Below are positions 1-23,040 of a DNA stretch of 23,040 nt, piece after piece. The stretch is from Ochromonadaceae sp. CCMP2298. Taxonomy: Eukaryota; Sar; Synurophyceae; Ochromonadales; Ochromonadaceae. A program made the translations under genes and the position numbers. Location of the stretch: assembly GCA_026770595.1 (NCBI GenBank), contig MU633809.1, forward strand, positions 1 through 23,040, read 5' to 3'. The notes beneath the pieces are model-generated. The model searched no databases, had not been told where the DNA came from, and saw nothing but the letters and a program-made list of their open reading frames with translations. Position 1 is the first letter of the stretch. Each line of letters begins with the position of its first letter.

Positions 1-97
1 CCAGGTCTGCGATGGGCATCTCTTCCCTGTTGATGGGCGAGCTCTCTGCAGAGGCAGAGTCATCAGCGAAGGTTCTCTTGGACTTGCTGTAGATCAT
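1..97 (-). CDS. 5' end of an unidentified protein-coding gene (runs off the window)
   Basis: A reading frame on the minus strand starts with ATG at 95-97 in good context (AACACCATG) and stays open for 32 codons to the left edge. The start reads MIYSKSKRTF, then an acidic Ser/Ala-rich stretch (ADDSASAESS). The frame is also open upstream of this ATG back to a TAG near 265, without another ATG, so an upstream exon cannot be excluded. A longer overlapping frame at 63-335 has no homology-like features and I treat it as a shadow. Too little is visible to name a function. The position fits the alternating gene order, because the next gene is on the plus strand. Confidence 0.35.
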   Translation of the reverse strand, partial: MIYSKSKRTFADDSASAESSPINREEMPIADL

Positions 98-914
98 GGT
101 GTTCTTGGTGATGTTCTTGGCGGTGGTCGTGCAGGTCTCTGGAGCTATAATTGTGAACGGCGATCCATAACGGCGAGCAGATGGCAACCCAATTGGCAGC
201 GATCCAGCTGCCTGGTTCCAAGTTGAAGACAAATTTTTGGGGAGAACCCGTGCTGGAAAAGTCTAACGGCAGCTTTTGACAGAGAAGTCGTGCTGGAAAA
301 GTGGGTTTTCGTTTTCCAGCGCGAGTTCCCGCCAAAATCTAACCCGGCCCACTCGCGAGGGAAAACGCTCCTACCGGCCGGATTTTAGGGGGTAAAAAAG
401 CCCAAAAAAACACCACTCAGGTAATAAAACAAAATCAAGGCGCCAATTCATGGTAATTTTTCAATAGTATTAATCTCTAATTAGATTATCTAATATAGAT
501 TTAAATACGTTTAAAATATAATTTTAGTACAGTAATAGATTCATTGCACATCTTTATGATGCCAAGGTTTGTAAAGCTAGCTATCCCTTCGCTCGTCGAC
601 GGTTTCAATCTTCAACTGCAAACCCAGTCCCGTAGGCAAAAACCAAAAAAATGTGGGCTTTGATCGAAGAAGTCCCCACTCTTTCAGTCTTTTCGAAATT
701 CAGGGGACAGAATTCCCTCCATTTCCGAGACCACTCCCCCTCTTTCCCCCTTTCCACAAATATTCCACCCAACACGCACGCACCCCACCCCAACAGATTC
801 TGAGTCCACACGCCGCAGACTCCAAACAGCCGCCAACAGTCACCCCACGTGAGAGTGTTGCAATTGCGCAATTAATCCTTGTACAGAGTCACTCTTGCGA
901 AATTCACGCACGTG
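98..914. promoter_or_regulatory. Divergent intergenic region with AT-rich core and shared promoter motifs
   Basis: No gene is visible. The left part has two copies of CGTGCTGGAAAAGT (near 249-262 and 287-300) and CCCGCCAAA at 328-336, an E2F-like TTTGGCGGG on the minus strand. The middle is very AT-rich, with AATAAAAC (423-430) and TAGTACAGTAA-N10-GCACAT (525-551). The same elements recur in the same order in the 7636-8160 divergent region. The right part is pyrimidine-rich and carries two CACGTG boxes (846-851, 909-914) around a 12-bp palindrome AATTGCGCAATT (862-873), just before the ATG of the peroxiredoxin-like gene. Confidence 0.5.
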
Positions 915-1656
915 ATGATGAAGAACGGGGGGAAGACGTTGGGCGAAGGGGATCTCTTCCCGCGTATCTTTCTCTGCAGCGAGGATGGGGAACAGCTGGC
1001 GATTCATGCGGAGGGGAGACGGAAGCTCGTTGTTTTTTATCGAGGGTCGTTCTGCCGATTCTGTGCACGTAAGTCGATACTGCTCCTCGTTTTTCTATCC
1101 CGAATACTGTTGGCTCACCTTCTCCTTCTTCCAAATTATAGATACCCTGCAGGAGGTAAATGACAGGATGGATATAATGGAGAAGTCCGGGTTTGACGTC
1201 GTGGCCGTGTCGGTGGACGGTCGAGAAGCATCAGCCATCTTCAAGCGCGACCTCAAGCTCCGCTACTCGTTGGGCTGCGGGCTCACCAGATCGCACATGC
1301 AGGAGATCGGCTTGAAAATCAGCGGAGCCTCCCTTACCCCCCGCCACACGGCCTGCTGCTGTGAGGAGGGCCCTGGCTACTGCTCAGGCTCGCAGGCCTA
1401 CGCGCCCCACTTTAGCAAGGGCACCCGCATCGCGCCCTTCTCCCAATACGAATCCAGAATGCGTCACGACAGCGGCGCCACTACGAGCAGCAGCTCGGAC
1501 AGCGGCTCCTCCTTCTGCAGTCTGAGCAGCTCGGCGAAACTCAAGCTGGGCGAGGCAGCGGCGCCAGTGATCTACTGCGAGCCCGCACACTTCCTGCTGA
1601 ACGCCGACAACACCATCAACTGCACGTTCAACCCCGACAACCTCTGCCACATCTAA
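915..1656 (+). CDS. AhpC/TSA peroxiredoxin-like (thioredoxin-fold) protein
   Basis: Two exons, 915-1068 and 1142-1656, with a 73-nt GT-AG intron, give 222 aa. Splicing joins RGSFCRFCA to HTLQEVND and so rebuilds the family pattern FYRGSFCxFCxxHLxEL with a CxxC redox site near residues 47-50. The next part (GFDVVAVSVDGREAS, then FKRDLKLRYSLGCG) is the usual strand-helix core. CEPAHFLLNADNTI near the end matches the FxEPxxFLIxPDGT strand of the PRX_like2 group. These proteins are predicted thiol-dependent reductases; the substrate is unknown. About 80 residues rich in Ser and Cys (ACCCEEGPGYC, then a poly-Ser tract) are inserted between the core and the last strand. The protein stops right after that strand, so the usual C-terminal helix is missing. 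The start is the first in-frame ATG. No organelle signal is obvious. Confidence 0.85.
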
Positions 1657-1660
1657 CGAT

Positions 1661-1687
1661 GCACACACACCCTAACACTGTGTGTGC
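1661..1687 (+). other. Perfect 9-bp inverted repeat just after the stop codon
   Basis: GCACACACA (1661-1669) and TGTGTGTGC (1679-1687) pair perfectly around a 9-nt loop, four bases after the TAA of the peroxiredoxin-like gene. In the mRNA this would be a 3' UTR hairpin. Whether it acts in 3' end formation or stability is unknown. Confidence 0.5.
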
Positions 1688-2216: not shown

Positions 2217-4219
2217 TTATACAAATGACATGTTTTTACATTCGCGGTTGTTGCTGGCGGAGAGCAGCGCGAACAGCTGCACGGTGTGGCCTACCACCCA
2301 CGTGTTGGCCGGCTCGTTGGAGACCACCAGGGTCAGCTCGTGCGCAGTGTCCGCCAGGTCCTCGAAGAGGGTCATGATCTCAGACCTGCCTGTGTTATTC
2401 TTCTCCATCGCCCAGCTGTAGCCCTTAAAAAAACCCGACGCGCGGGCCCTTTTGTTGCGGTTTCCGTCTACGTATGCGTCCACGATGCCCATACCGTCTC
2501 GCCTTTGCCAGATGGCGATCTTCACCGCAGAGCCGTAGAACTTGAAGGAGATCTCAGAGCCGGGCGTCTCTGCCTGCCAGCTGCGCCGGAAGCTCTTGGT
2601 GACCCCGATCTTCTGCCCGGCGGCGCTGCTGCCCGAGCTGCTGAGGCCTGTGCGCTCGTCCCCGCCTGCAGTAGAGGAGCCTGCGTTGAACCCCCCGAAG
2701 CCAATCTTCATACGCACTACTTTGCGGAAGCCCTTGGGCGGGCGCACAGGTGTCAGCAGGCCGTTGGCGTCGTCGCTCAGCGCGTCACAGCGTGTGCAGT
2801 GGCCTAGCGGGTTTGTGGGGTACATGGGGGGCGGCAGCTGGACCGTGGTGGGCTTAAGGGTGTCGTAGGAATGGGCGTGGCGGGTGATGCTCCCGTCTGT
2901 CTCCATGGTGACGTCGAACGATACGGCGTTGGACAGCTTATTCCACCAGGCGAACAGCAGGTCCCCCAAAAAGGGCACGCCCCTGCTGCCCCAGGGGTGC
3001 ACCCCATCAGTGAGCGAGTACTGGCTATAGATGCGTTGGGGCAGGTGGTCCTTGCCGAAGCACAGCACCACCGCGGGGCACACGTCGATCAGCGGTATGC
3101 CGTAGTAGTACGAGTGCAGTAGGTAGCGGGGACTGCCGCAGTCGGGCTTCACCCACAGATCCACTATGGCCACTACAGGTTGGGAGGCGAGGGTGAGCGT
3201 CTTTCTAAGGAGCGCGTCCATGAGCTTTGGGTGGCCGTAGTCGTTGACGGAGAAGTCCACTAGCACTAGGTCCACGTTGGGGTACTTGTCCACGTCCACG
3301 CAGAAGATGGAGTCTGAGGGGAGGATTTGGGGAGGGAGGGGGTGTCGATGGGCAGTGGGGGAGTGGGGGAGTGGGGTAGGATGAGAGGAGGTGAGGAGAT
3401 CAGCGGGTCAGAAGGAGAGACTCGGTGCGGTCGCAGCATGTCAGATACGCAATAGGGCAATAGGGCAACACAGCAGGGTAAGAGTGCAGAGCTCAGTGAT
3501 TCAAAGTGGATCAACAGTGGCCGAAGCCTTTAGTCCCTTAGATGTCAATTTTGTGAATCGTCACCGCTCCCACACAGACCACAGCCACATAATACAGCCA
3601 TAGACAGCAGGCACAAACAGCAGGCAGGCACTGGGAGGACAGGGGCTCTGTGCCGGTGCTTACATTGAAGCTCAGTAGCGCCGTGCCCGTGGTTGTACAC
3701 GTTGACCGTCAAGCTGTGCTTTTCCCTTAGCAGCTTCACGAACTGCATGAAGTACCCGCCGGCGGTGATGCTGCCCCCCAAAGCCAGGATGTCGATGGTG
3801 CCGCGGCTCTTGACTCGCTGAAGCACCCTCACGAACCGCATCATATCGCCCATATTCGGCACCAAACCCAGCTCCTGCATCATCCTGTCGGCATCGTCGC
3901 ACACGCGGTGGTACATGAAGTCGTCTGGCCGGTAGACGGCGACCATCACGTAGGGGTCGCCCAGCGGCAGGCTGTTGAGCACCTCGTCGTTGATCTTCTT
4001 GATCGAGCTGATGTTGAAGCCGTTGGACACGAAGGTGTGGAAGTCAGGGAAGGACCTGCGCAGGCCGTTCTGTATATGGAAGAGGGCGTTGCGGTTGCCC
4101 TTCACCACCTGCCCCTCGTGCTCGTGCGCCGCCGCAGTGTTGGGCACCCGCCCGGTGCGTGGGGGCGGGGCGTACACCACGCAGCATACTGCGAGGTAGA
4201 GCACAACCCAGCGCAGCAT
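2217..4219 (-). CDS. Secreted or membrane-anchored SGNH (GDSL-type) hydrolase with extra C-terminal domain
   Basis: Two exons, 4219-3664 and 3313-2217, give 550 aa; the 350-nt intron 3314-3663 has donor GTAAGC and acceptor CAG. The first ATG gives MLRWVVLYLAVCCVVYA, a signal peptide or anchor. The SGNH blocks are in order: GGSITAGG with Ser150 as nucleophile, HGHGAT near 178-182 as the Gly block, DFSVND with Asn209, and DGVHP with Asp288 and His291. The splice joins ELQ to YSIFCVDVDKYP, giving one continuous fold. Such enzymes are esterases or acetylesterases, often on polysaccharides or lipids; the substrate cannot be told. After about residue 330 comes a Gly/Ser-rich linker, then a probable beta-rich domain (KFYGSAVKIAIWQRRDGMGIVDAYVDG) that resembles accessory or carbohydrate-binding modules; this is inference. 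It is divergent from RSP3 (367 bp between starts). Confidence 0.85.
3318..3378 (+). repeat. G-rich tract inside the SGNH hydrolase intron
   Basis: On the plus strand several runs of three to five G occur in about 60 bases, including GGGGGAGTGGGGGAGTGGGG, which could form a G-quadruplex. In the transcript, read from the minus strand, it is C-rich and makes up the pyrimidine-rich stretch before the acceptor at 3314. Confidence 0.5.
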
Positions 4220-4586
4220 CAGCTCCGTGGCCCTGAACACTCTCAACTGTGGCTGCACGGCTGACTGATCTCACTCTGACTCTGGCAATCTCGTCACATC
4301 GAAAGGATGGACCAACACTGGGTAAAGTGAGCGTACTTTCGCAGTACGTACCGCCATAGTACGTCAGTTTCGTTTCCGTACGAAACCGGCGATAATTTTG
4401 GCAGTTTCGTCCAAGAAGGTTGGAGGGCGAGAAAGCGAACCAAAGTGCAAAGTGATCTGCCAGCGAGCGCGGGAGATCTCTCTCGCTCTGCAACACAATT
4501 GTATTGATTCACTGCTGGACTGAGAAGGCAGCTCATAATTCACAACCCCTCTCTTCTACTGGCCATCGCTAGAGACAGGTTGCAGA
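4220..4586. promoter_or_regulatory. Divergent promoter region between SGNH hydrolase and RSP3
   Basis: The two start codons lie 367 bp apart, back to back. The region holds two copies of AGTACGT (4343-4349, 4358-4364), two of CAGTTTCGT (4365-4373, 4402-4410), and an inverted repeat GTTTCG/CGAAAC (4367-4372, 4381-4386). No TATA box is obvious. It may drive both genes; a match to the ciliary RFX X-box was considered but is imperfect. Confidence 0.45.
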
Positions 4587-5681
4587 ATGCAGACGGAGGA
4601 GACGTTCGAGTACTCGACACAGCCGCATGCGGCGCCCACCAAGAAGAAGAACAAATATAGAAGCGAGGGCGAGGAAAATGTCGGGCCTGATGGAATATCG
4701 AACATCATGTACGACGCGCGAGTGGTGCGCGGCAACACATATGCTGCGAAGGTGATGACCACGAGCTTGAAGAAGGATCTCGATAGGACAAGCAAAAAGC
4801 AACCCAAGCAGTCGAAGATGCTCGGCTATGCCCGGCGATCATCAACACCGCCCCCCGTGAGCGGCCGGACACACATGAATATGCAGACTGAGGATTTCCT
4901 TGAGGAGATTACGGACCGGCCTATCGAGCAGGACGTAGAGACGCAGACCACTGCCGCGTTGGACCGCCCAGCCTCGCCTTTGTTTGTGCGAGCCAAGATC
5001 GGGTTCGACGCAGAGACGCAGATCGAGAACGGAGATTTGTTCGACTTTGATCTGGAGGTGGAGCCTATTTTGGAGGTGCTGGTGGGTAAGACCATCCACG
5101 TGTCTATGCTGGAGTTGATGCAGGAGGAGGAGCTGGATGCCATCAGACTGCAGCAGGAGGAGTTCGAGGCAGTGCGCAACGTAGAGCTCGCAGAGGTGCA
5201 GCGCCTAGAAGCCGAGATCAAGCGGAAAGCGGCCGAGAAGGACCGCCGCATTGCGCAGGAGAAGAAGCGGCTGGAGGATCGCAGACGTCTGGAGGAGACA
5301 GTAGCAGCGCGTGCCTTCTCGGATCAGTTCCTGGGAGACCTGCACCTCAACGTGTTCGACATGCTGCAGGAGCAGGGGCACTTCTTCGACCCCGTGCAGA
5401 GGGAGGTGGAGCAGCTGTTCATGCCTGCGCTGATCGAGGGCCTCACGAGGGGCGGGGGTTGCTATGAGGCGGCCTCGATTATTGCCGCAGAGCTGCTGGA
5501 GGGGGCCAGGGCCAAGGCCAAAGCCTTCGAAGCAGAGGCAATCAAGCTGCGCAAAGAGATGCAGGCCCGCGTCGCCGCAGAGCAGGAGAAGCAACTCGCG
5601 ATCGCAGAGGAGGCACGGCTGGCGGCAGAGGCGGCGGCGAAGAGTGCAGAGGATGCGGAGAACGCGGGCGAGGAGGAGTAG
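4587..5681 (+). CDS. RSP3: Radial spoke protein 3 (axonemal A-kinase anchoring protein)
   Basis: Single exon, 364 aa. RSP3 forms the dimeric backbone of the radial spoke and anchors it to the outer doublet microtubules of the flagellum. The N-terminal signature NIMYDARVVRGNTYA sits at residues 39-53, followed by the conserved GRTHMNMQTEDFLEE at 93-107 and an ETQT segment at 118-121. The core VEPILEVLVGKTIHVSMLELMQEEE (about 157-182, cited in part) is the amphipathic helix that binds PKA RII or RIIa-like subunits in this family. A charged coiled coil follows (about 178-240), then LGDLHLNVFDMLQEQGHF and an Ala/Glu-rich C-terminal helix. The length is shorter than the Chlamydomonas protein but covers the conserved core. 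Its presence shows that the organism makes motile flagella. Confidence 0.95.
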   Translation: MQTEETFEYSTQPHAAPTKKKNKYRSEGEENVGPDGISNIMYDARVVRGNTYAAKVMTTSLKKDLDRTSKKQPKQSKMLGYARRSSTPPPVSGRTHMNMQTEDFLEEITDRPIEQDVETQTTAALDRPASPLFVRAKIGFDAETQIENGDLFDFDLEVEPILEVLVGKTIHVSMLELMQEEELDAIRLQQEEFEAVRNVELAEVQRLEAEIKRKAAEKDRRIAQEKKRLEDRRRLEETVAARAFSDQFLGDLHLNVFDMLQEQGHFFDPVQREVEQLFMPALIEGLTRGGGCYEAASIIAAELLEGARAKAKAFEAEAIKLRKEMQARVAAEQEKQLAIAEEARLAAEAAAKSAEDAENAGEEE

Positions 5682-6207: not shown

Positions 6208-7635
6208 CTATGTTGAGTTTAGGGCTCGGCGGGAGATCGCGAATTGCTCCAGCCTGCGACACGCCTCCGCCACCGCCTCTAGCCCCACCCAGCAGAAGCA
6301 CACGCGGAAGAATCCCGGCAGGGGGTGGTGGCAGGCTTCGCCGGGGGTGAGAGATATCTTGAGCTGGGCTAGGTCTCGGTGCAGGGCCCTCTCTCCCTGG
6401 AAGGACTGCTCCCCCAGTAGCGAGCGCAGGTCTGCGAAGAGGAAGATGCCCGCGCCCGCGTGGTAGAAGGGTAGACCCAGGCGGGTGAGGCTGGCGGTCA
6501 GGCAGCGATGGGAGGCGGCGATGCGGGTGCTGTTGAGAGTCAGGAAGTTCTCTAGGAAGGGCGCGTCGGAGAGCACGCCTGCTAGCAGCTCCTGCACTGG
6601 GTTGCTCACCTGAGAGGCGCAGAGAGGGAGTTTCAGGTTACAAAGGTTGCATAGGTTACACAGGTAACATAGGTTACATAAGTTACACAGAATATTTCGC
6701 ATAGGGACACAGGGGTATAGATTACATAGGGGAGTATGTATATTAGACCCCCTTACCTGGTGAGCCATGTTGTTAGTCCCCAGGGCCTTCAGCAGGCGCT
6801 GGTTCTGGCTGTACAGTACACCTATACGTAGACCCGATCCCCCCAGGTCCTTAGAAGCCCCCCACAGCAGGTGCACTGTGTCACCTAGCTGGTTGCCCAG
6901 CAACGAGGCGAGTGACTGGAAGGCGCCCTCTGTAGTAGTATCGAACACAGACAGCGCATATATCTCGTCACATAGCAGGTGCAGCTCGCGCTCCCGGCAC
7001 CACTCCACCAACATCAGCAATTCGTCTGCGGGGTATATCTTTCCTAGGGGGTTGTGGGGGTTGGTGAGCAGGAAGCACTTGGGGGGCGCGCCCTGCAAAA
7101 AGGCTGATTCGTAGGCTGCATCCAGGTCCTCCCGTCGTAGGGAGAAGTCTCCCTCGGCCGCAGTAGAGGAGTGCACAGGCATAGTACGTACACGTCCTAG
7201 GTCGAGGAAGTCCCTATCGAAGGCTGCGTAGTAGGGGGTGGGGACGAGGACAGAGTCCCCTGGCTCGAACAGCATCACGGCCAGTTGCACGAGCAGAGAG
7301 GTCACGCCCGCACTCACGATCAGGTGCTCAGCCTTCACGTCGCACTCCGTGAACACGTGCTGGCCCAGGAAGGAGCTGAGCGCGCTCTTCAGCACGGGTA
7401 GGCCGGTGGGGTCGGTGTAGTTGAGGCATTGCGGCGTGAAATCTTCGCTGTTGTTCAGTCGCTCGAGCAGGAGGTCGCTGTTCAGCTTGTTCTCCGCGAC
7501 GGAAAAGAGGATCGCTCCGCCTGGGTTGGACACTGGATCATACTGATCACCCAGGAAGGACATGTGGACACCGATATAGGTGTTGAACGACGAAGCCGCT
7601 AGAAAATCTTCCGCTCTGGATCCCAGTTTCGCCAT
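6208..7635 (-). CDS. Class I/II PLP-dependent aminotransferase, ACC-synthase-like
   Basis: Two exons, 7635-6757 and 6609-6208, give 426 aa. The start is the only in-frame ATG upstream of the domain. The N-terminus (SRAEDFL, YDPVSNPGGAILFSVAENKL) is typical of 1-aminocyclopropane-1-carboxylate synthase-like proteins. Other marks are NYTDPTGLP (72-80), TNPHNPLGKI (191-200), CDEIYALSVF (222-231), and SKDLGGSGLRIG (261-272), where Lys262 should bind PLP; GFFRVCFCW near the end holds the substrate-carboxylate Arg. In this family some members make ACC (ethylene precursor) and others are plain transaminases, so activity is not settled. No targeting peptide is seen, suggesting the cytosol. The 147-nt intron (6610-6756) is CAG|GTAAGG...CAG|GTGAGC and is free of stops in frame, so retention would insert 49 Cys/Asn/Leu-rich residues. 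Confidence 0.9.
   Translation of the reverse strand: MAKLGSRAEDFLAASSFNTYIGVHMSFLGDQYDPVSNPGGAILFSVAENKLNSDLLLERLNNSEDFTPQCLNYTDPTGLPVLKSALSSFLGQHVFTECDVKAEHLIVSAGVTSLLVQLAVMLFEPGDSVLVPTPYYAAFDRDFLDLGRVRTMPVHSSTAAEGDFSLRREDLDAAYESAFLQGAPPKCFLLTNPHNPLGKIYPADELLMLVEWCRERELHLLCDEIYALSVFDTTTEGAFQSLASLLGNQLGDTVHLLWGASKDLGGSGLRIGVLYSQNQRLLKALGTNNMAHQVRGSNIHTPLCNLYPCVPMRNILCNLCNLCYLCNLCNLCNLKLPLCASQVSNPVQELLAGVLSDAPFLENFLTLNSTRIAASHRCLTASLTRLGLPFYHAGAGIFLFADLRSLLGEQSFQGERALHRDLAQLKISLTPGEACHHPLPGFFRVCFCWVGLEAVAEACRRLEQFAISRRALNST
6610..6756 (-). other. Frame-preserving, stop-free intron with a degenerate 9-bp tandem repeat
   Basis: The intron is 49 codons long and open in the reading frame of both exons. 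Its middle consists of degenerate TGTAACCTA-type units (plus-strand AGGTTACAn between about 6635 and 6690), which would encode CNL/CYL triplets. It interrupts the aminotransferase fold between AHQ and SNPVQELL, where the family has no such insertion, so splicing is expected. Confidence 0.75.
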
Positions 7636-8160
7636 CGTGCACTGATCTGATCGAGGGAAGCTCTGTGCCTCGTGAGGTGCTTTCAATGGATCTCCAGCAA
7701 CGAGTACGGGTACGGAATGAGGGATACCAGGAGTTATGATGAAGTCTGGGGTTTCGAAAAATAGCCAAAGTTGCAAAAACGTCAAAACTCCCGCCAAACG
7801 CGCCTACACGAGTCATAAAAATCACATTTTGAGGCAATAAAACGATCATCAATCGATTAATAAGGAAAGTTTAGTACAGTAACATATAGATTGCACATTT
7901 TTCCAATAAGTCTTAAATCGCTGGTCCTTGACTGCGGTTGTGTTAGTATTTTTTAGGGGGGTTTTTGGCGCGTAACGGTAATGGAGGGGACCTTCCCAGC
8001 TTCCTGGAATTTTGTCATCACACATCGCACACCTGGAACTGAGGCTGATGCTCTGGAGCTGGAGAGGTTCGTTCTCGGTTCAGAGTTTTCCTGTTCTGCG
8101 GTGGTACTTTTTATTGAAAGAAGGGAGGGTCTGTGTAGAGGACCGACCAAATCTTTGGTT
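7636..8160. promoter_or_regulatory. Divergent promoter region, aminotransferase / DUF1499
   Basis: Both genes start outwards from here (525 bp). It has CCCGCCAAA (7790-7798; TTTGGCGGG on the aminotransferase strand), AATAAAAC (7836-7843) and TAGTACAGTAA-N10-GCACAT (7872-7898). The same three elements occur in the same order at 328-551. An open frame in phase with DUF1499 extends upstream of 8161, but its nominal start at 7981 lies far before the signal peptide, so I do not use it. Confidence 0.45.
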
Positions 8161-8892
8161 ATGCGAGCCTTTTCATTTTGGCTTGTACAATTACTGGGCG
8201 CCTTGGCAATCAGCGCAGCCTTCACCAGGGGCAGTCAGTGCCGCACCTCTCGCCTTGTGCTTCTCTCGCCTATCCGGTCACTGCGAGGAATGAGCAAGAT
8301 CAGTGCTTCAAGCGATGACAACGGACAATCCGACGGGGGAGGAGCGGTCACTGTACCTGCCATCGCGAAGGTCGCGGCGGTCTTCCTGCTCACCATGCTG
8401 GCTCCCATATACGGTGTGGGAATCCCACTGCTCGGCCAGATGACGGACTTCAGCACAGTGGAGAACAGGCCATCTCCCAACGAGTGCTTCGTGGCACCTG
8501 CTGGCTTCCTACGCGCAAGGGCTCAGATCGAAGCTCCGACGTATGCTGTGACTCCAGACGAGCTGCTGATCAAGCTGGACTACGCCGTCAGAGGCCTCGA
8601 TCGCGTCGACTTCATCGCGGAGGACAAAGACACGCGGCGTCGCGAGTATGTCGTCAGAAGCAAGATTTTCCAGTGGCCAGACGTTGTCACAGTCACCACG
8701 ATGCCAGCAGAAGAAGTGTCATCGGGCACACTGTCGGGCAGCAAGTACCGGAGTACTCTGGCCCTGCACTCCTACTCCATCTACGGCGAAGGCGACCTGG
8801 GCGTCAATCGAGCCAGAGCCGAAGACATTCTGCAGCGCCTTCAGTTCTCACTTTGCGGGACAGATCCCAGCAAGTCTCTATACTGCAGGTGA
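8161..8892 (+). CDS. Plastid-targeted DUF1499 family protein
   Basis: Single exon, 243 aa from the ATG that opens the signal peptide. MRAFSFWLVQLLGALAISAA is followed by Phe21 and a Ser/Arg-rich stretch (FTRGSQCRTSRL), the bipartite signal of complex red plastids. A second hydrophobic segment at about 65-90 (IAKVAAVFLLTMLAPIYGVG) could be a thylakoid-transfer or membrane segment. The body fits DUF1499: a SPNECF motif (in place of the usual PNCVSS), RREYVVRSKIFQWPDVVTV, and EGDLGVNRARAEDIL near the end, matching the GYSDLGVNRKRVE motif. The usual RSASR motif before it is changed to LALHSYS. The function of DUF1499 is unknown; plastid members are often lumenal or thylakoid-associated. Targeting is inferred. 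Confidence 0.85.
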   Translation: MRAFSFWLVQLLGALAISAAFTRGSQCRTSRLVLLSPIRSLRGMSKISASSDDNGQSDGGGAVTVPAIAKVAAVFLLTMLAPIYGVGIPLLGQMTDFSTVENRPSPNECFVAPAGFLRARAQIEAPTYAVTPDELLIKLDYAVRGLDRVDFIAEDKDTRRREYVVRSKIFQWPDVVTVTTMPAEEVSSGTLSGSKYRSTLALHSYSIYGEGDLGVNRARAEDILQRLQFSLCGTDPSKSLYCR

Positions 8893-12784: not shown

Positions 12785-14244
12785 TTACTCGGCACTGGGT
12801 GTGGAGGTCCACACAGCCTGCGTCGTCTCGATCCACTGGTCAAGCTTCTCTAACCCTCTCCCAGAGTTGAGTGCTTCCCTCGCCTGCTGCACGCCCTCCG
12901 CGATGCTGCCCGCGCTCCCGTACACGTACAGGCCGACGCCCGCATTCAGCGTCACCGCGTCCCTCTTGGCGCTGCTGTGCTCTCCGCCGCGCAGCACCTC
13001 CCTGTGTATTGTGTTAAGAGCAGGGGAGATAGGGTGAGCCGAGCTGTTCGGGGAAAAATGCGAGTAGATTAGCAGTACTGGGGCGGCCTCCTCTACCTCA
13101 GCGCGAGTGCGTTCTGGTCTCTGTCGCCGCCCTTCAGGTCCAGCAATGTGCATCGCGGGATCCCGATGGACAAAGGGTCGAACTGGTACCTGGTGTCGTG
13201 TGAAGACGGGAGCGTGGGAACATGGGAACACGGAACACGAGCAAGCAAAGGAAACAAGTCAGAGACAAGTAAGAAACGTAGCGCGTGTGAGAGCAGTGGG
13301 GCGGGATTTGCAGAGAGGCTGGAATGTTAATCTAAAATACACCGTGCAGTTGTGCAGTGGTGCAGTGGTGCAGAGCAGTTGACTCACTTCCTGGTCTCGT
13401 AGACCTTGGGCCTGCCTGCAGCTGCCGTGTTGCGGATCTCGAATATGGTAGACTCGCCCAGGGGGGAAATCTCGTCCAGCCCGCAGCCGTGCACCACCAC
13501 GCCGTGCTCGATGGAGCCGATCTCCAGCAATGCGCGGCCTATGAGGTCCACCAGGTCCTTCTCGAACACACCGATGACCACCCGCGTTGCTCCAGCTGCG
13601 TTGGTAATTGGCCCCAGCAGGTTGAAGGCCGTGCGCACGCCGAGGGCCTTGCGCACAGGCGCGACTGACTTCATAGAGGGGTGGTTCATGGGCGCGTACA
13701 TGAAGCAGATGCCTGCCTGCTGTACGCACTGGGCCATCTGCTCCGCGCTGATCTCGATCCGCACACCTAACGCCTCCAGCACATCCGCGCTGCCGCACTT
13801 GCTCGACACAGAGCGGTTGCCAGCCTTCGCTATGCGGCAGCCTGCTGCTGCTGCGAGGATCGCGGAGGCTGTGGAGATGTTGATGGTGTCTGCGCCGTCT
13901 CCGCCTGTGCCCACTATGTCTAGCAGTTTACCGTCCACAGGTACGCGCACGGAGGCCTTCTTCATCGACCTCACCATGCCAGATATCTCCACAGGAGTCT
14001 CGCCCTTCGCCCGCAGGAGGACCAACAAAGCGGCTGTGGAGATGGGGTCTGTTCCGGCGAGGATGAAGTCCCAGGCGCTCTCGGTCTCGTCCGCAGTGAG
14101 GTCTTCCCTTGAGATCAGCTTCGTGATCTGTGGCTTCAACGACGTGATCGGGCTAGGAGCCTGGTTGAACCAGAAGGCTGCGTGTAGGAACACGCCCTGT
14201 GTGCATAAGACAACTGCCAGTAGATACAGCGAAAGCAGCTTCAT
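12785..14244 (-). CDS. trpD: Anthranilate phosphoribosyltransferase, plastid-targeted
   Basis: Three exons, 14244-13388, 13189-13097 and 13001-12785, give 388 aa. The enzyme transfers the phosphoribosyl group of PRPP to anthranilate, the second step from chorismate to tryptophan. MKLLSLYLLAVVLCTQGVFLHAAF is a signal peptide with Phe24 at the probable cleavage point, a plastid bipartite signal. DIVGTGGDGADTINIST (109-125) binds PRPP; KAGNRSVSSKCGSADVLEALG (140-160, given in part) and HPSMKSVAPVRKALGVRTAFN (188-208) form the rest of the active site. Splicing joins VYETRK to YQFDPLSIGIPRC and then DQNALALR to EVLRGG, which restores the family pattern RDAVxLNAxxxLY. Introns are 198 and 95 nt. The start is the first in-frame ATG. 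The plus-strand frame opposite exon 1 is a shadow. Confidence 0.95.
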
Positions 14245-15240: not shown

Positions 15241-16332
15241 ATGCAAGCAGATTTAGAATTCTCCGCCCTCAACTTCGCCAGCGCGCTGCTCGCTCTCCGG
15301 AAGAACTCAATCCCATCGGTAAATAACCTCTCTCTGCCTTTGGCTTTGCCGCCTTGTCCTGGTTCTGACCTATGTGACCTAACCTGTGACCGGCTTTCAT
15401 CTACTTACACTTGCATCCGCTGCAGGAGACTTTCGACCAGGAGGGAGATAAACACGCATACATCGACTCTACTTCCTCGGAGAGTAACGATAGCATCGAG
15501 GTACGCCGTTGGTCTTTCATCCTTACCTTGCTGCGACTTGCGGCCTCGCTCAATCACTCATCTGCTCTTGCTTTCTTCCCTTGTTGTTCAACAGGGCTAC
15601 AGCGACACTGGGAAGTTTTGGCGGTCCTCCCTGAAGAGAGGGTACGACTGTGTCGAGATGCCGCAAGATAGGAATGTGAAGAACAGGGAGGACGTGGCGT
15701 CTTTGGCCTTGCGTGCCTCTCAGGAGCAGGCCGCACTGGACAGAAAGCAACGCTGCCGGGGCAGGTACAAGTGCTCCCGCTGCGGAGTGCCAAAGGTAAG
15801 ACTTGTGCTAAGCCCCTAGTTGTTGCTTCTACGTGCCATGCTGGCTTGTACTGACCCATTTCCCCTCCTGACTCTTCTACTCCTGTCTCAGATCAACCAC
15901 GTATGCAAGCTAGCAGCGGACAAGGTCGTGCTCTCCGTAGGAACAAGCACCATCCACGCTGAAGCGCAGTGGCTCCGCGTCGTGGCGGCTGTGCGCGGCA
16001 TCGCTGTGGAAGGTTATTATGCTGAAGGGCGTCCCTATGCGGCCAGTTCGTCTGGCGCCGGTGACTCCACATTCATGCCCGACACGTTCGACAGCTCTTC
16101 ATCGGAGGTGGAAGTTGATGAGCAAGAGGATGAGGGCGATGTCAGCGCCGACGTAGCAGCCTACAAGGCATCCTTCGACGCATTCACTGCGCAAAAGGGC
16201 GGCCAGGTTTTGCCCTACTCTCTCCCACTCCCACACCACCAAGCCAAGGAGGCGCCCACTGTGCAGGACTTGCCCCGGCGGTTCACCGGGCGGGTGATCA
16301 CCGTCACGCGCAATAGGAAGAGCATACAGTAA
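15241..16332 (+). CDS. C2HC zinc-knuckle protein of unknown function
   Basis: Four exons, 15241-15318, 15426-15500, 15595-15795 and 15892-16332, all in phase 0, give 264 aa. The introns are 107, 94 and 96 nt. The start is the first ATG (MQADLEFSALNFASALLALR, helical). Exon 3 begins GYSDTGKFWRSSLKRGYD and ends in YKCSRCGVPK; exon 4 continues INHVC. Together they give Cys-x2-Cys-x6-His-x2-Cys, a short zinc knuckle of the YKCxxCGxPKxxHxC type found in many plant and algal proteins. After it comes INHVCKLAADKV, then a long acidic tail (SSSSEVEVDEQEDEGD). Such knuckles bind nucleic acid or protein; nothing more specific can be said. The codons and conserved splice sites support a real gene. Confidence 0.75.
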
Positions 16333-16830: not shown

Positions 16831-17208
16831 TCAGAGCTTGGGCCACACGTTTCCGTCCTCCCACCGGATCTCGTGAGCGCCATAGGCACCTACATCCCCG
16901 TACTTGCCCGTCAGATTTTCGGGCCCACCCTTGGAGCTGAAGTTAGCAACAATCACAAGCGCGTCCAGCACTGCAGGCACCTCCCAAGCAACGTCGGTGG
17001 TTCCATCGCATGAGGCACCCTCACCGCCGGCAGCGTCGGCTCCCTTGATAACCGCCAAGAACTGCGACTGTGCCTCCACGGTCCTCTGACACGAGGGGTG
17101 GTTGGGGTCGCTGTAGTCGCCGTTGAGCACGGACTTGGCGAGGGGCTCCGCGGAGACAAGCGCTGCCACAAGGGCGGCGAAGGCGAAGAAGCAGAAAAGG
17201 GACAGCAT
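16831..17208 (-). CDS. Small secreted protein of unknown function
   Basis: Single exon, 125 aa. MLSLFCFFAFAALVAALVSA is a clear signal peptide, predicted to be cut before EPLAKS. The mature part has DYSDPNHPSCQR, GEGASCDGTTD, VANFSSKGGPENLTGKYGD and the ending IRWEDGNVWPKL. This pattern (two Cys, an FSSKGGPxxLTG loop and a final WEDGNxWPKL) looks like a compact conserved domain; I believe similar small secreted proteins occur in other marine protists, but I cannot name a family. The lack of Phe after the cleavage site argues against plastid targeting; it is more likely secreted or in the endomembrane system. It starts 240 bp from the divergent plus-strand frame at 17449. Confidence 0.75.
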   Translation of the reverse strand: MLSLFCFFAFAALVAALVSAEPLAKSVLNGDYSDPNHPSCQRTVEAQSQFLAVIKGADAAGGEGASCDGTTDVAWEVPAVLDALVIVANFSSKGGPENLTGKYGDVGAYGAHEIRWEDGNVWPKL

Positions 17209-17448
17209 GGTGAAGAATGTGAGGTTGAACAGGAGGGGAGACCTCGATGGAGCTTCTTCTACAGCAGTTTTTGTGAGTCAGTCAAGAACGAGTGGATTGT
17301 TGGGAGGTTTCCCAAAAAGAGGGGGACCACTCGATGGCACTTTCAACTCCGGGGAACGTTCCCTACTCCCGGTGCTCCATGTTTCGCCGCTAACAATGTC
17401 TATTTTTCGTTTCCTATGTAATAACCGTTGTCTTATGCCTCTCGATAA

Positions 17449-17714
17449 ATGACACAGATACAGACCCTGCCGAGCGAGCGTTGGCTATTGGCTCTGAAGG
17501 AGCAGCAGAAGCAGCAGTTGTTGTTGAGGCACGAGGCCAATGCCGGCACGGCGCAGCTGATCGAGCAGGGCGACGGCACAGTGGTTCCAATCACCCCTAC
17601 GTCGTTGTCCACGCATACTAGGGCGTCGTCTGGTTACGCTGTGACGACGGCAGCGACAAAACGGGAGTGCTGGACTCGGCCGCGGTCGCTGATGAGAAGA
17701 AGCAGTGGAAGTAG
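17449..17714 (+). CDS. Small uncertain gene (two possible readings)
   Basis: ATG at 17449 opens a frame with protein-like codons: MTQIQTLPSERWLLALKEQQ, then a Gln/Leu-rich helix and AGTAQLIEQGDGT. The same frame stays open to 17976, but after about residue 60 it runs into AT-rich, non-coding-like sequence. A neighbouring frame between 17622 and 17714 looks much better (GVVWLRCDDGSDKTGVLDSA, ending KKQWK and TAG). Removing 17581-17621, a 41-nt GT...AG segment, joins them exactly and gives 74 aa. That intron would be much shorter than any other here, so a frameshift or chance must be considered. The gene would keep the alternating strand order. I do not recognise the product. Confidence 0.35.
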
Positions 17715-18083: not shown

Positions 18084-18407
18084 TCAAACGTCGAATTCCG
18101 CATCCGCAGCCTCTCCGAACATCTTCTTCCTCTTGTTGTTGTAAATATTTGGCTCTTTGAAGGCAGCGCCGACGCCGTACTTGGAGGGCATAGCGAGGAG
18201 CGGCCTGGTGGTGAGCACCTGCTCGTAGTGCTTTATGCGCGCAACCTGCTCGTGAGGAACGCCGTTGTCGAACAGAGATCCCCAGGCTTCGTTCCACTTC
18301 GTGGGGGCCTCCTGCTCAGACCGCAGCCGCTGCTCCCAGTTCTTGCAATCAGCCTCGGGGTTTGGCGCCTTCTTCCCGGCTCCGTCCGCTGCTGCTGCCG
18401 CCGCCAT
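18084..18407 (-). CDS. Small protein resembling ciliary microtubule inner protein CIMIP1 (C20orf85)
   Basis: Single exon, 107 aa, with an Ala-rich start (MAAAAAADGAGKK). The core DCKNWEQRLRSEQEAPTKW, followed by NEAWGSLFD, matches the pattern W-x3-L-x2-E-...-W-x2-NWG-x-L of the C20orf85/CIMIP1 family as I remember it. The next part (RPLLAMPSKYGVGAAFKEP, then NNKRKKMF) would be the extended arm. Members of that family sit on the inner wall of ciliary doublet microtubules. The assignment rests on a short motif, so it is tentative, but the window also encodes RSP3 and the organism therefore has flagella. The ATG at 18407 is the first in frame; no targeting signal is seen. Confidence 0.6.
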   Translation of the reverse strand: MAAAAAADGAGKKAPNPEADCKNWEQRLRSEQEAPTKWNEAWGSLFDNGVPHEQVARIKHYEQVLTTRPLLAMPSKYGVGAAFKEPNIYNNKRKKMFGEAADAEFDV

Positions 18408-18832
18408 TTATGTCTATTTATCCGAGTAATGTGCCGTTTACGCTGGCTGGGTTCCGCAGCTCCTTCGAATGGTACCTTTTGGCCGACTGGAATAGTGAGT
18501 AAATGCTGCGCTGGCACTTGCTGCAGCTTTGGTCCTTCGCAACAAGCACATCACATCACCCTCGCTCGCTGTTTTGTTGAGCCAACCTCTTCGGGTGAAA
18601 CGGCGTAACGGCTGGCTCCGTTTTCACAGTTTATCCGGGTTATTTTTATCCCAGGCTAAATTTATCTCGATCACCTTCCCTCCTGAACCTAACTGATGAG
18701 GCTGCGCCTTCGCTCACAACTGCAGTGCAGCCCTGGATTCAAAGAGGTTCTCTCAAAGACGATACACTGAAGCTGCGCCTTCGCTCACAATTGTAGCGCA
18801 CCACCTGTATTCAAAGAAGTTCTACAGACAAT
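18408..18832. promoter_or_regulatory. Divergent promoter region with a tandem duplication before RBX1
   Basis: The 425-bp region lies between two outward genes. The part next to RBX1 holds two imperfect copies of a roughly 65-bp unit (18698-18764 and 18769-18833). No other structure stands out. Confidence 0.45.
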
Positions 18833-18833
18833 A
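18698..18833 (+). repeat. Imperfect tandem duplication, period 71 bp
   Basis: Both copies begin GAnGCTGCGCCTTCGCTCACAA and contain ATTCAAAGAnGTTCT. The second copy ends at the RBX1 start codon, so the RBX1 5' UTR probably derives from one unit. Confidence 0.8.
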
Positions 18834-19434
18834 TGGCGGAGGAGAAAAAGGTCGACGTGGGGGAGAAGATGGACGAGGCCACCAAGGAGGACTCCTCGTC
18901 CAGCAGCGCGATGCGGTTCGAAATCAAGAAGTGGAATGCGGTGACCATGTGGTCGTGGGACATCTGCGCAGATACGTGCGCCATTTGCAGGAACTCGCTG
19001 AATGAGCCCTCCATCGAATACCAGGTGCGAATTCCGCCTCTCTGCCTCTGCCATCCCTAGCGCAGAATTTCGTTTACCGCTCTCCTTTTCCCTCCCATCT
19101 GCTGACAATCTAACATCCGCCATCCTATATCCGCCATCTTGACACCTGACACCTGACACCTGACACCTGACACCTGACACCTGACACCTGACACCTGACA
19201 CCTGACACCTGACCTCCATCTGACATCGAACACCTTGACATCGGATGACAGGCAAGTCCATCCCCCAACAACGAGAACGGGCTGTCCATCGCGTTCGGCA
19301 CGTGCGGACACGTGTTCCACCTGGACTGCATCCAGCGGTGGCTGAAGACGCGGTCTGTGTGCCCGCTGTGCAACAAGGAGTGGGACTTTGCGAAGATCGA
19401 GCGCATTCCTGGATATGGGAACAACCACGCATAA
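18833..19434 (+). CDS. RBX1: RBX1-like RING-H2 protein with altered zinc ligands
   Basis: Two exons, 18833-19024 and 19252-19434, give 124 aa. RBX1 is the RING subunit of cullin-RING ubiquitin ligases; its N-terminal strand sits in the cullin and the RING recruits the E2. [18 protein letters not shown] is the cullin-binding strand; [27 protein letters not shown] and VCPLCNKEW are RING parts. Against human RBX1 the spacing between CAIC and the next Cys is identical (29 residues), yet Cys53, Cys56, Cys68 and His82 (the third zinc) are Ser, Tyr, Leu and Asp, while the ligands of the other two zincs are kept, Asp97 being Cys. It therefore looks like a two-zinc RING. The C-terminus has an extra [12 protein letters not shown]. 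The 227-nt intron carries a 7-bp tandem repeat. Confidence 0.9.
19141..19213 (+). repeat. Heptanucleotide tandem repeat GACACCT, about 10 copies, in RBX1 intron 1
   Basis: Ten perfect 7-bp units (19141-19210) plus a partial one. The minus-strand frame through it reads a repeating RCQVSGV and is not a gene. The acceptor follows about 40 bp downstream. Confidence 0.95.
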
Positions 19435-19807
19435 GTGTATTCTGTCCGCGAAGGCGCGTGGGGGGCGTAGCGTTGAAAGCCTGTCAGTCGGCATGTAGGA
19501 GTGGGTCGATAGGTGTTAGGGGTGGGTGAATAGCGATAGTCGTGCTCTCGGGACGCAAGGACGGCGGTGGGTTTCGAGGACACGAAGGGTTGGTTCCTAC
19601 TCTAACATAACAGAACCAGAGTAGTGACGAGTGACCGCTCCACAGAGCTTCTTTCTTACAATTAATACGCGGTAAATCCCTACGACATACCCTATGCTAC
19701 CTCTGCTCCTCCACTGTTTATGCATCTGTATATGCAATTTGCCCCACCACCTAATCCCCGGCGCATGCCTGCATGCCTGCCTATCTGCCGCTAATCCTGA
19801 CCTAGCT
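19435..19807. other. Convergent intergenic region, RBX1 / repeat protein
   Basis: No gene. It contains GGTTCCTACTCTA-N5-ACAGAA-N-CAGAG at 19592-19621, a copy of the motif found upstream of ETFB (10968-10998). Confidence 0.45.
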
Positions 19808-22800
19808 TTATCTGCCGCCGATCCTGACTTTGATGCGCTTCCCCGACTGCAAGAAGGTGAGCTCTGAGTTGCCCGCCAGCTTGCTCTTGGCCACCTTCAG
19901 GTTCAACTCGGACAAAAGCTCATCCACCTCGCTGTATACCAGCCGAGGCATGCCGGAGATGCCCGATAGGCAGTAGCCGATGTCCTTCACCGAGTACTCG
20001 TCCTCCGCACCCGCATACGCACTCCCCGCATCCACACCCACACTCACACCCAAACCCACACCTGCGTCTGAGTTGCCCCCCTGCCGCATTTTCTGCAGCA
20101 GCACGTCCAGCGCGGCGCGCACCTCTGGCACATTCACGTCCATACCTTGCATCCCGAACAACGCGTTCCCCACATCCCTAGGCCGCATTATCTCCCCACT
20201 GGCCTCTGCCACGTCCGCCAGCAGACCCAGTGTGTCTGTCACCACAGAGGAGTCGGTGTTAGACATGCTCTGCAGACCCGAGAAGCTGTTGCCCACACCC
20301 TGTGCTGTGAACTTCAAGGGCGCCGGAACCCAACTAGCCCCCGCACCGGCCCCCCCACCCACACAGCGCTCCTTATACTGTGCTAGCTTCTCGTTCAGCA
20401 CGCTGAGCACACTGATCACTTCTTCAAACCGAGAATCCATATTTTGCATTCCGTAGAGAGCGTTGCTCAGCTCCTGTGCGCTCAAGGGGCCAATCTGCCC
20501 CCGCGCCGCCGCCCCCGCCACCGCTGCCAGGAATGCCCTGACGTCGGGCTCTGCGGATGTCATGCGGAAGAGCGAATAAAGAGAGTTACCCAAAGCCTGA
20601 GCGTCCAGAGTGCGCACCCTGGAGGTGAGGGCTGCCAACACCGTCAAGGCGGCGGGTTTCCTTTGGGGCCCCGTCTCTGCCCCTGCCCCTGCCTCTACCC
20701 CTGCCTCTAACCCTGTCTCTGCCTCTGCCCCCACATCCGCCCCCGATCCATTCTTGGTTTTCTTGAACCTGCTGCAGCTGCCCTTGATGCCTAGCAACCC
20801 CATCGACAGAGTCTGGGCGCTGAGGGGCTCCCCAGAGGCCGCGATCTTCTCCGCCAATGCCAGCAGCACCGCCTCCACTGCCTGCACGTCCGCCGGTCCC
20901 ACCATGGACTTCATGCCGTACAGGGCCAGACCCACGTGGCGACTCAGCAGAGGCTCAGGACTGCTGTGGATGCGGCTGGCCAGCTTGAGCAGCAGGGGTC
21001 GCACCTGGGGCAGTTTCTTTATGTCTACGTGCTGCAGGCCGTACAGAGAGAGGGCAATGTCTACCGAGCGGAAGGTCTGGGTAGAGCGACGCTCCATCTT
21101 CTCGTTCAGCGCCTGCAGCAAAGCCCCCTAAAGAAATTGTGTGCAAGATTAAATAAGAGTAAATCAGTCAGTACTTCAACACTACCTTTAACATCACGGT
21201 GCAAAATAGGAAACTTACCACTTCGGGGGCGTTGTTTCTGGCGCTGCCCAGGCCGGAGAGTATGTTGGCCACTGCTGAGGGCTCCACCTCGTGGGGTGAG
21301 GCGCGCAAAGCGGCAGTCAGCAGAGCCATGGCGCGCCTGACCTCTGGCCCGTCGCTTAGACCCCGCAGGCCGTTAAAGGCAGAGGAGATGGTGAAGGGGG
21401 TGAGGGGCTCGCTCTGCCCCTGCAGATGCCCCTTTGCCTGCCCCTGTGTCTGCCCCTGTGCCTGCCCCTGTGTTTGTCCCTGCGTCTGTCCTGCCACTGT
21501 GCGCTCCAGCTTGTCGCACAGCAGACTCACCATGCGCAGCACCTGCGGGCAGTCTCCCATGCACCGCAGCCCCATAAAGGCACTGCCCACGCCCCTACGG
21601 GAGAGGCTGGAGGCCGCGGCTGGGTGCGAGAAGCGTTTGCTGAGGGCGGTCAGCAGGCCCCGTACCTCGGGATGGTCACTAGAGCACCCCTGCAGGCCGT
21701 TCAGTGCGCTGCTCATGCTTTGCTCGTTGAAGAAACCTGTGCTGGTGGTGACCTTGTAGTCTAGCAGGGACAGGAGCTGCTTCAGCTCCGCGTTCCCCCT
21801 GCCGCCTGTGCCAGCACCTAGACCTGTGCCTGTGCCCTCGCTGTCAGGCAGCTGCATGCGCCGCAGGCCGTAGAGGGCGTTGGACACCTCTTGTGTGTTC
21901 ATATTGTGCGTGCTCACTGAGAACCGGTCCGCCAAGGCCCTGAGTAGCTTGCGCACCTGGGCCGAGCACGCACCCCAGTTCTCGAAATTCTGCAGCCCGT
22001 AGATACTGTTCCCCATCTCCTGGCCTGTAAATCCTTGGCCCTGCACCTGCGCCTGCGCCTGCACCTCGGCTTGTCCCTCCACTTGGACTATGGAGACTGT
22101 GGGGACTGTGGGGGTCGTGGGGACTGTGGGGGACGTAGGTACCTCCAGCAGTCGCTGTGTGATCAGCTCCAGGTACGCCTGCACGTGTGGCGTATGTGCG
22201 CTCATCAGAGAGAGAGAGTAGAGGGCGTGCGCGATGTCCACGGTCGAGAAGGAGCCAGCCACCACCCCCTTGCCCTGCTGGGACTGAGACTGGGACTGGG
22301 ACCGGGACTGAGTGCGGCTCATCACGGCCACCACCTGGTCCAGCGGAAACAGCGCCAGGATGTTGAAGCGCGCCTTTGCAGAGCGCTGCAGCAGCGTGAC
22401 GGCGTGCACGTGGTTGAACTCATCTCTGTGTGCCTCTAGCAGTGCAGTCACCTCGGCCGCGTAACTGCGGGGATCCGCGTCTGCCCGGAAGATGCCGCTG
22501 ATGCGTGCGTTTATGGCCGCGCCGGTGCCCTTCTTGAACGACTTGCGTGCTGCCGGAGCCCCCTTGACTGGGATCGGCGGCAGCTTCAAGTTCGCCGGCT
22601 TGTCTGGTGCTGCTGGCCGCTGTTGCTGCTGCTGCTGCTGTCCCTGCCCTTTCCTCGGCCTCTGCACACCGCCGCCTATCATTCCCTCCGAATCGCCTGC
22701 GCTGGACTCGACATAGAGACGTACTGGGGGCTCAACTGCACGTGAGGCCCAGCGGCCCTGCCGAGGGGCAACGAAGGCACCCGAGAAGACAGCCACCTGC

Positions 22801-22847
22801 AACAGCACCCACCACACCACGGCCACTTTAGCAGTCATCACAGGCAT
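19808..22847 (-). CDS. Plastid-targeted helical-repeat protein (15 OPR/HPR-like repeats)
   Basis: Two exons, 22847-21219 and 21127-19808, give 982 aa; the 91-nt intron (21128-21218) falls inside repeat 7, and splicing rebuilds it (NNAPEV joined to GALLQALNEKM). MPVMTAKVAVVWWVLLQVAVFSGAFVAP is a signal peptide followed by GAFVAP with Phe25, a textbook complex-plastid signal. From about residue 195 on I count 15 units of about 35-40 residues: S-x2-[VI]-GNALYGLQxM, a loop, then PEVRxLLxxLxxKL. Low-complexity insertions (GQTQGQ, TVPTTPTVP) separate some units. The pattern resembles octotricopeptide and heptatricopeptide alpha-solenoids, which bind organellar RNA and act in plastid gene expression; but the LYGLQ signature differs from the classic OPR PPPEW, and no RAP domain is visible. 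Function is inferred. Confidence 0.85.
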
Positions 22848-22954
22848 CGAACCAGGCAATCGCTTCTCCCAAGCTCGGAATGCCGGTCAATGCTGAATGG
22901 CTTGCAGTGTCGCAGAACTCAAAGAGAAGCTGCGGAAACAGAGGGCCAGTGAGC

Positions 22955-22987
22955 GGAAAAAGGCGTCACAAGGGAAAAAGGCGTCAC
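22955..22987 (+). repeat. Direct repeat GGAAAAAGGCGTCAC x2, period 18, upstream of the repeat-protein gene
   Basis: Two identical 15-bp copies (22955-22969, 22973-22987) about 110-140 bp upstream of the minus-strand ATG. On that strand each contains TGACGC, a bZIP-like half site. They are promoter element candidates. Confidence 0.6.
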
Positions 22988-23040
22988 TTTTTTTTGTGGA
23001 TTTCGAAAATGTGGATCACAATTTAGAGCAATCTGCACTG

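What the first reader, a model, noticed from the sequence alone, without database searches (positions are those of the whole stretch)
1..23040. Perfect strand alternation across 15 neighbouring genes
Counting all called genes the order is - + - + - + - + - + - + - + -, so every intergenic region is either divergent (240-996 bp between starts) or convergent (about 360-560 bp for well-supported pairs). With random orientation, 14 opposite pairs in a row would have probability 1 in 16384. If the uncertain frame at 17449 is dropped, 12 of 13 pairs still alternate. This suggests a genome built from bidirectional promoters and shared 3' regions, unlike the one-directional clusters of dinoflagellates.
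Basis: partly seen in the sequence, partly recalled or inferred. Interest (0 to 1): 0.75.

Follow-up and report, generated by a model that had tools for sequence, protein, structure and literature searches.

The report
Alternating gene strands in a chrysophyte
In this golden alga neighbouring genes nearly always point in opposite directions, so most genes seem to share their start region with one neighbour and their end region with the other; brown algae show a milder form of the same habit.

Summary
The window is contig C84 of Ochromonadaceae sp. CCMP2298, a chrysophyte alga: its spliced ETF-beta protein is 100% identical to that strain's record. A self-trained gene finder returns the 15-gene order - + - + ... 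-, also when trained without the window. Two calls are weak: the cut gene at 1-97, and the + frame at 17449, which has no homologue. Without 17449, 12 of 13 pairs alternate.

The pattern is not local. In 191.7 kb (window plus sampled stretches) 63 of 72 neighbour pairs are opposite-strand, 50 of 59 outside the window. The same finder on gene units in shuffled orientation gives 0.505 on average and at most 0.656 in 400 runs. Pairs with Pfam hits on both sides give 18 of 21.

Perfect alternation is the same thing as every gene belonging to a divergent pair, so one rule suffices; the likeliest is that two genes share one promoter region. That is inferred, not shown. The brown alga Ectocarpus has a weaker form (61.7%; PMC7784034). 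The degree, not the kind, is new. Relatives' gene order and RNA data could not be reached.

The parts
1..97 (-). Gene 1, 5' end of a gene cut by the contig edge (a longer 5' end to about 160 is possible)
   Evidence: gene finder, score 12, 11 without the window in training; weak
915..1656 (+). Gene 2, peroxiredoxin-like (AhpC/TSA), exons about 915-1068 and 1142-1656; the finder starts it at 1177
   Evidence: (AhpC-TSA E 2.5e-4, below Pfam's cut-off); first exon by eye
2217..4219 (-). Gene 3, esterase-like secreted protein, one intron 3314-3663
   Evidence: (CE2_N E 9.8e-5, below cut-off)
4220..4586 (.). Divergent gap, 367 bp, putative shared promoter region
   Evidence: function inferred
4587..5681 (+). 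Gene 4, radial spoke protein 3
   Evidence: Pfam E 2.7e-78; relatives up to 87% identical
6208..7635 (-). Gene 5, class I/II aminotransferase, one intron
   Evidence: Pfam E 3.4e-52
7870..7898 (+). 29-nt repeated word TTTAGTAY-N13-TTGCACAT in a divergent gap (second window copy at 523-551 +)
   Evidence: 54 matches in G000, 0 for the reversed control
8161..8892 (+). Gene 6, DUF1499 protein; start uncertain (7981, 8161 or 8290)
   Evidence: Pfam E 2.3e-7; start at 8161 preferred by eye for its signal-like N-terminus (recalled presequence type)
9251..10723 (-). Gene 7, NYN-domain-like protein
   Evidence: (NYN_YacP E 9.6e-4, below cut-off)
10724..11096 (.). Divergent gap, 373 bp, putative shared promoter region
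   Evidence: function inferred
11097..12323 (+). Gene 8, electron transfer flavoprotein beta subunit, four exons
   Evidence: 253 of 253 residues identical to the Ochromonadaceae sp. CCMP2298 record; the finder's first base is one off a codon start at 11098
12785..14244 (-). Gene 9, anthranilate phosphoribosyltransferase-like, three exons
   Evidence: Pfam Glycos_transf_3 E 6.3e-67
15241..16332 (+). Gene 10, unknown protein with CxxC motifs, four exons; the finder starts it at 15658
   Evidence: no Pfam match
16831..17208 (-). Gene 11, small secreted-type protein
   Evidence: score 44; no Pfam match
17449..17714 (+). Gene 12, uncertain frame on which perfect alternation depends
   Evidence: score 21, 14 without the window in training; no homologue
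18084..18407 (-). Gene 13, LLC1-like small protein
   Evidence: score 42; weak LLC1 match E 0.0017
18408..18832 (.). Divergent gap, 425 bp
18833..19434 (+). Gene 14, RBX1 RING protein, one intron
   Evidence: PDB RBX1 sequences E 5.6e-33; zf-rbx1 E 1.2e-21
19435..19807 (.). Convergent gap, 373 bp, putative overlapping 3' ends
   Evidence: function inferred
19808..22847 (-). Gene 15, long protein with repeated xNALYGLQ-type units, one intron
   Evidence: score 398; no Pfam match

Best explanation
The window is ordinary nuclear DNA of the chrysophyte Ochromonadaceae sp. CCMP2298, whose genes, in the parts of the assembly sampled here, alternate strands at about 85-89% of neighbour junctions. Alternation needs only one rule: if every gene belongs to a head-to-head pair, any string of such pairs reads - + - + ..., because the junction between two pairs is always tail-to-tail. 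Shown: the orientation excess and the short gaps. [quoted passage not shown] in a compact genome this is kept because the arrangement shields both promoters from read-through of an upstream gene and shares regulatory space; convergent gaps then hold two facing 3' ends.
For: 63 of 72 neighbour pairs opposite, 50 of 59 without the window; 26 of 27 parameter sets give 65 of 73 and one 63 of 72. Finder control: gene units in random order and orientation give mean 0.505, maximum 0.656, longest alternating run 12 in 400 runs; 0 of 660 natural tandem junctions merged in 20 runs. Pfam-supported adjacent pairs 18 of 21, or 14 of 17 above Pfam's cut-offs (hand count). Divergent gaps: median 567 bp, 19 of 32 under 600. 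Divergent and convergent gaps differ in words. In Ectocarpus, divergent genes closer than about 600 bp share one nucleosome-depleted region (PMC7784034, section 9 read).
Against: No transcript or chromatin data, so promoter sharing is not shown. With a filter of score 60 and 300 nt the fraction falls to 33 of 48, read here as dropped genes because tandem gaps then widen to a median of 1317 bp. At least three tandem pairs have homology on both sides. Tandem gaps (median 710, n 9) are not clearly longer than divergent ones, unlike Ectocarpus. TGTAA is not sense-biased after stop codons (32 sense, 30 antisense) and 26 of 71 genes carrying it lies within a shuffled control (mean 17.7, maximum 30). 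In Ectocarpus divergent partners are not co-expressed. The sample is about 0.3% of a 61-Mb genome, from longer contigs, and denser than the genome mean.
Confidence: 0.62

Rival explanations
1. The constraint sits at the 3' ends: genes need a facing convergent partner because termination is leaky or poly(A) regions are shared, and divergent promoters follow as a by-product.
For: Perfect alternation is equally a string of tail-to-tail pairs, so orientation alone cannot tell. Convergent gaps are the shorter class (median 358 bp, 28 of 31 under 600) and rich in TGTA-type words.
Against: Convergent gaps as short as 105 bp and as long as 2287 bp both occur; no strand-specific 3' signal was found; the Ectocarpus chromatin data point to the promoter side.
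Confidence: 0.25
2. Palindromic mobile elements carry mirror-image promoters and, by inserting, created divergent promoter regions.
For: Two divergent gaps are themselves inverted repeats of about 370-380 bp (88% and 76% self-complementary). A 29-nt word has 54 matches in G000 and none for its reversed control. All 6 local profile hits lie between divergent genes, one of them beside the cut gene 1. Inverted repeats show in 7 of 33 divergent gaps, 1 of 33 convergent and 2 of 13 tandem (hand count).
Against: The 29-nt word is in only 4 of 34 divergent gaps. A related copy lies at both ends, in opposite orientation, of a stretch of about 1.3 kb on C32, the look of a terminal inverted repeat of an ordinary transposon. 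Promoter-bearing gaps may simply tolerate insertions, and they are the longer gap class.
Confidence: 0.04
3. Artefact: the gene finder merges same-strand neighbours or calls spurious opposite-strand frames, or the window is a chance run.
For: With gaps trimmed to at most 140 bp the finder merged 34 of 660 tandem junctions; gene 12 of the window has no support.
Against: Controls; Pfam-supported pairs 18 of 21; result unchanged by intron and gap priors; ETF-beta splicing exact.
Confidence: 0.03

Closest known systems
Ectocarpus (brown alga) genome: adjacent genes tend to lie on opposite strands (PMC7784034, section 9 read; its source genome paper not read)
   Same: An ochrophyte alga; excess of opposite-strand neighbours; short divergent gaps (median 409 bp there, 567 bp between start codons here).
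   Different: 61.7% of genes beside TSS-adjacent gaps are in divergent pairs there; here 64 of 73 gene starts face another start. Tandem gaps are far longer there (median 2293 bp) but not clearly so here (710 bp, n 9).
Chromera and Vitrella (PMC4501334, passage seen)
   Same: Closely spaced genes are head-to-head more often than chance.
   Different: Reported there as an excess among close genes (data not shown), not as near-complete alternation.
Eukaryotes with non-random gene direction among 64 species (PMC2871058, section 6 read): Monosiga, Cyanidioschyzon, Thalassiosira pseudonana, Cryptococcus
   Same: Departure from 50% co-directional pairs; T. pseudonana is also a stramenopile.
   Different: Size and direction of the departure are in a supplement that I did not see.
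Unidirectional gene blocks of dinoflagellates (named in the finding) and Leishmania polycistrons
   Same: Non-random strand order.
   Different: The opposite extreme: same-strand runs (98% co-directional in Leishmania).

Membership tests
Ectocarpus-type alternating genome | Excess of opposite-strand neighbours | tested here: met
   63 of 72, 50 of 59 without the window; controls
Ectocarpus-type alternating genome | Divergent gaps much shorter than tandem gaps | tested here: inconclusive
   median 567 against 710 bp with 9 tandem gaps
Ectocarpus-type alternating genome | One nucleosome-depleted region shared by close divergent TSSs | not testable with these tools
   no chromatin or TSS data; 19 of 32 divergent gaps are under 600 bp between start codons
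Ectocarpus-type alternating genome | Divergent partners not co-expressed | not testable with these tools
   no expression data
Dinoflagellate-type unidirectional gene blocks | Long runs of same-strand genes | tested here: not met
   longest same-strand run is 2 at score >=15; 3 at score >=20 (C15, where a Pfam-supported kinase gene is dropped) and 3 unfiltered (L033, weak frames)
Terminal-inverted-repeat or fold-back transposon (for the 29-nt word) | Inverted copies at the two ends of repeated elements | tested here: inconclusive
   inverted pairs; ends, target-site duplications and a matching transposase were not established

The most novel reading that the evidence does not exclude
In this chrysophyte the divergent pair, not the single gene, is the unit of the nuclear genome: nearly every gene lacks a promoter region of its own, and the residual tandem pairs are recent, transient breaks. 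This would be among the strongest strand alternations described for a eukaryotic nucleus.
Probability: 0.35. Interest if true: 0.75.

Novelty: new member of a known kind. Interest (0 to 1): 0.55.

Why it matters
If about 88% holds over the whole 61-Mb genome, this alga is close to a limit case: a nucleus in which genes are almost never transcribed behind one another. That makes a general question directly testable, namely whether strand order in compact genomes is set by promoter sharing or by avoiding read-through, because the rare tandem pairs serve as built-in exceptions. Together with Ectocarpus it suggests that the habit may be widespread in ochrophyte algae and graded in strength, which annotated genomes could settle at once.

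Tried and rejected
Universal promoter word: word counts of divergent against convergent gaps gave A/T-rich words and TTTTGGC(G). Of 8 TTTTGGCG sites in non-coding gaps, 4 lie in gaps with the 29-nt repeat and a fifth near a degenerate copy, so this is partly a repeat signal; one further site counted as divergent (window 15616) is in an exon of gene 10 that the finder missed. Strand-specific 3' signal: TGTAA is rich in convergent gaps but not sense-biased. Hidden genes in the 9 tandem gaps: one on C15 holds an inositol polyphosphate kinase (score 18, Pfam E 8.4e-27), which turns that tandem pair into two opposite pairs; the 2173-bp C15 gap has a weak + frame (score 9.1); the other seven show frames no stronger than those in other gaps. 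Relatives' gene order: scans of genome contigs and viral contigs with a radial spoke alignment found no relative; the protein collection gives no context. RNA genes: none found in the window. Search for the fact in print: (open-licence PMC papers only) listed nothing on gene orientation in chrysophytes; in the CCMP2298 genome paper 'orientation' and 'intergenic' occur 0 times and the 'strand' passage shown is about cDNA (12 of 21 places shown). PMC13076208 and PMC12477816 were looked at by search terms only and had nothing on it. Chance or a local cluster: rejected.

Full report
What the window is. The window is the whole of contig C84 (23,040 bases) of a genome held as G000 with 11,247,203 bases in 724 contigs. 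The spliced protein of gene 8 is identical over 253 residues to the electron transfer flavoprotein beta subunit recorded for Ochromonadaceae sp. CCMP2298, on a contig of 23,040 bases; NCBI places the strain in Ochrophyta, Ochromonadales. Its genome paper (PMC9756366; passages seen) reports 61.1 Mb, 12,764 scaffolds and 20,195 gene models, so G000 is a part of that assembly, probably the longer contigs. Gene content fits: radial spoke protein 3, RBX1, and proteins with plastid-type presequences (the last by eye and recall).

Checking the order. I wrote a small gene-finding hidden Markov model (start, stop, GT-AG introns of any phase, mirrored strands, equal chance of either strand after every gene) and trained it on the sequence itself. 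Gene 1 is a cut fragment and gene 12 (17449) has neither a homologue nor a strong score; the other 13 have scores of 42 or more, and some of them homology too. Perfect alternation thus depends on gene 12; without it 12 of 13 pairs alternate.

Beyond the window. I fetched 25 stretches of 10 kb from G000, one of them part of the window. Of the 240,000 letters outside the window 86,650 are withheld; these parts, and one stretch with only 664 letters left, were dropped. With six small loci the set is 191,729 bases with 103 predicted genes, 91 of them at score 20 and 150 nt or more. It includes 8,245 bases of L011, which look bacterial and gave no gene under the algal model; they did enter the training as non-coding, and their two long frames, both on +, were not counted. 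Opposite-strand neighbours: 63 of 72 in all, 50 of 59 without the window, 36 of 42 without the window and contig C15. Other filters: none, 67 of 83; score 30 and 200 nt, 58 of 69; score 40 and 300 nt, 52 of 62; score 60 and 300 nt, 33 of 48, where tandem gaps widen to a median of 1317 bp, as expected if true genes are dropped. Of 27 settings of intron and gap priors 26 give 65 of 73 and one 63 of 72.

Is the finder to blame? I cut the sequence into 65 gene units at mid-gap, shuffled order and orientation, and ran the same finder: mean 0.505, maximum 0.656 in 400 runs, longest alternating run 12, none of 14. In a first set of 20 runs it merged 0 of 660 natural tandem junctions; with gaps trimmed to at most 140 bp it merged 34 of 660. 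A second look takes strand from homology: 70 of the 88 predicted genes outside the window were scanned with Pfam, by their largest exon. Counted by hand, adjacent pairs with hits (E<=0.001) on both sides are opposite in 18 of 21 (7 of 7 in the window; 11 of 14 outside); with hits above Pfam's cut-offs only, 14 of 17. The three tandem pairs among them (ParcG and L7Ae on C15; GNAT and a trypsin/PDZ protein on L018; asparaginase and PhyH on L023) show that alternation is strong, not absolute.

Why it alternates. A row of head-to-head pairs always reads - + - +, and so does a row of tail-to-tail pairs, so one constraint is enough, and the excess of divergent and of convergent pairs is one observation. 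Divergent gaps have a median of 567 bp between start codons, 19 of 32 under 600; convergent gaps have a median of 358. The two gap types differ in words: TTTTGGC 0.81 per kb against 0.18, TGTAA 0.81 against 3.50, the first partly from a repeat. I take shared promoter regions as the likelier driver because Ectocarpus, which shows the milder form, has one nucleosome-depleted region between divergent genes closer than about 600 bp (PMC7784034, section 9 read). The same paper finds no expression correlation between such partners, so the benefit is more likely protection of promoters and economy of space than co-regulation. A terminator-driven origin is not excluded.

Compared with what is known. 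Ectocarpus: 61.7% of genes beside TSS-adjacent gaps are in divergent pairs; here 64 of 73 gene starts face another start. Against a fixed 0.617 the pair counts give p 1.2e-6, or 1e-4 without the window (pairs taken as independent). But the sample is about 0.3% of the 61-Mb genome, from long contigs, and denser (2.1 kb per gene at score 20) than the genome mean (about 3.0 kb per gene model). Among 64 eukaryotes a majority have about 50% co-directional pairs, with four named exceptions, one of them a diatom (PMC2871058, section 6 read; its supplement not seen). Chromerids have a head-to-head excess among close genes (PMC4501334, passage seen). The searches listed under Tried and rejected gave no report on chrysophytes.

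A side finding. Two divergent gaps of the window (523-551, 7870-7898) share a 29-nt word, TTTAGTAY-N13-TTGCACAT, found 54 times in G000 with none for the reversed control, often as inverted pairs. Elsewhere in the sample it lies in two gaps that are inverted repeats about 370-380 bp long (L023, C15), and relatives of the L023 repeat sit in opposite orientation about 1.3 kb apart on C32. This looks like a family of fold-back or terminal-inverted-repeat elements lodged in promoter gaps; it covers 4 of 34 divergent gaps of the sample and does not explain the alternation.

Verdict. The pattern is real and typical of the sampled sequence, strong by the standards found, and of a known kind. The mechanism is inferred, not shown.

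Noticed in passing
window 523-551 and 7870-7898; L023 4842-4984: A 29-nt word (TTTAGTAY-N13-TTGCACAT) repeated 54 times in the held genome with 0 for the reversed control, often as inverted pairs pointing inwards or outwards; all 6 sample hits lie between divergent genes.
   Followed up: partly
L023 4727-5099 and L030 691-1061 (C15 20691-21061): Two divergent gaps are themselves inverted repeats of about 370-380 bp with the 29-nt word in both arms; relatives of the L023 repeat lie in opposite orientation about 1.3 kb apart on contig C32.
   Followed up: partly
L011 1756-10000 (contig C10): Looks bacterial: GC 0.425, a 5.9-kb frame of repeated adhesin-like units, no gene under the algal model. 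The held assembly seems to contain bacterial contigs.
   Followed up: partly
L024 3266-5107: A MULE transposase-like frame (Pfam E 5.2e-9) beside a divergent gap with several inverted repeats.
   Followed up: no
window 19140-19213: A perfect 7-nt tandem repeat (TGACACC, 10.6 copies) inside the intron of the RBX1 gene.
   Followed up: no
window 11895-12016, 20677-20731, 21413-21488: Low-complexity CTCTGCCCCTGC-type repeats in an ETF-beta intron and in gene 15; similar stretches match 25 other places of the held genome, one of them in the window itself.
   Followed up: no
window 19808-22847: Gene 15 encodes a protein of about 980 residues built of repeated xNALYGLQ-type units with no Pfam match; by recall it resembles helical-repeat organelle proteins.
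   Followed up: no
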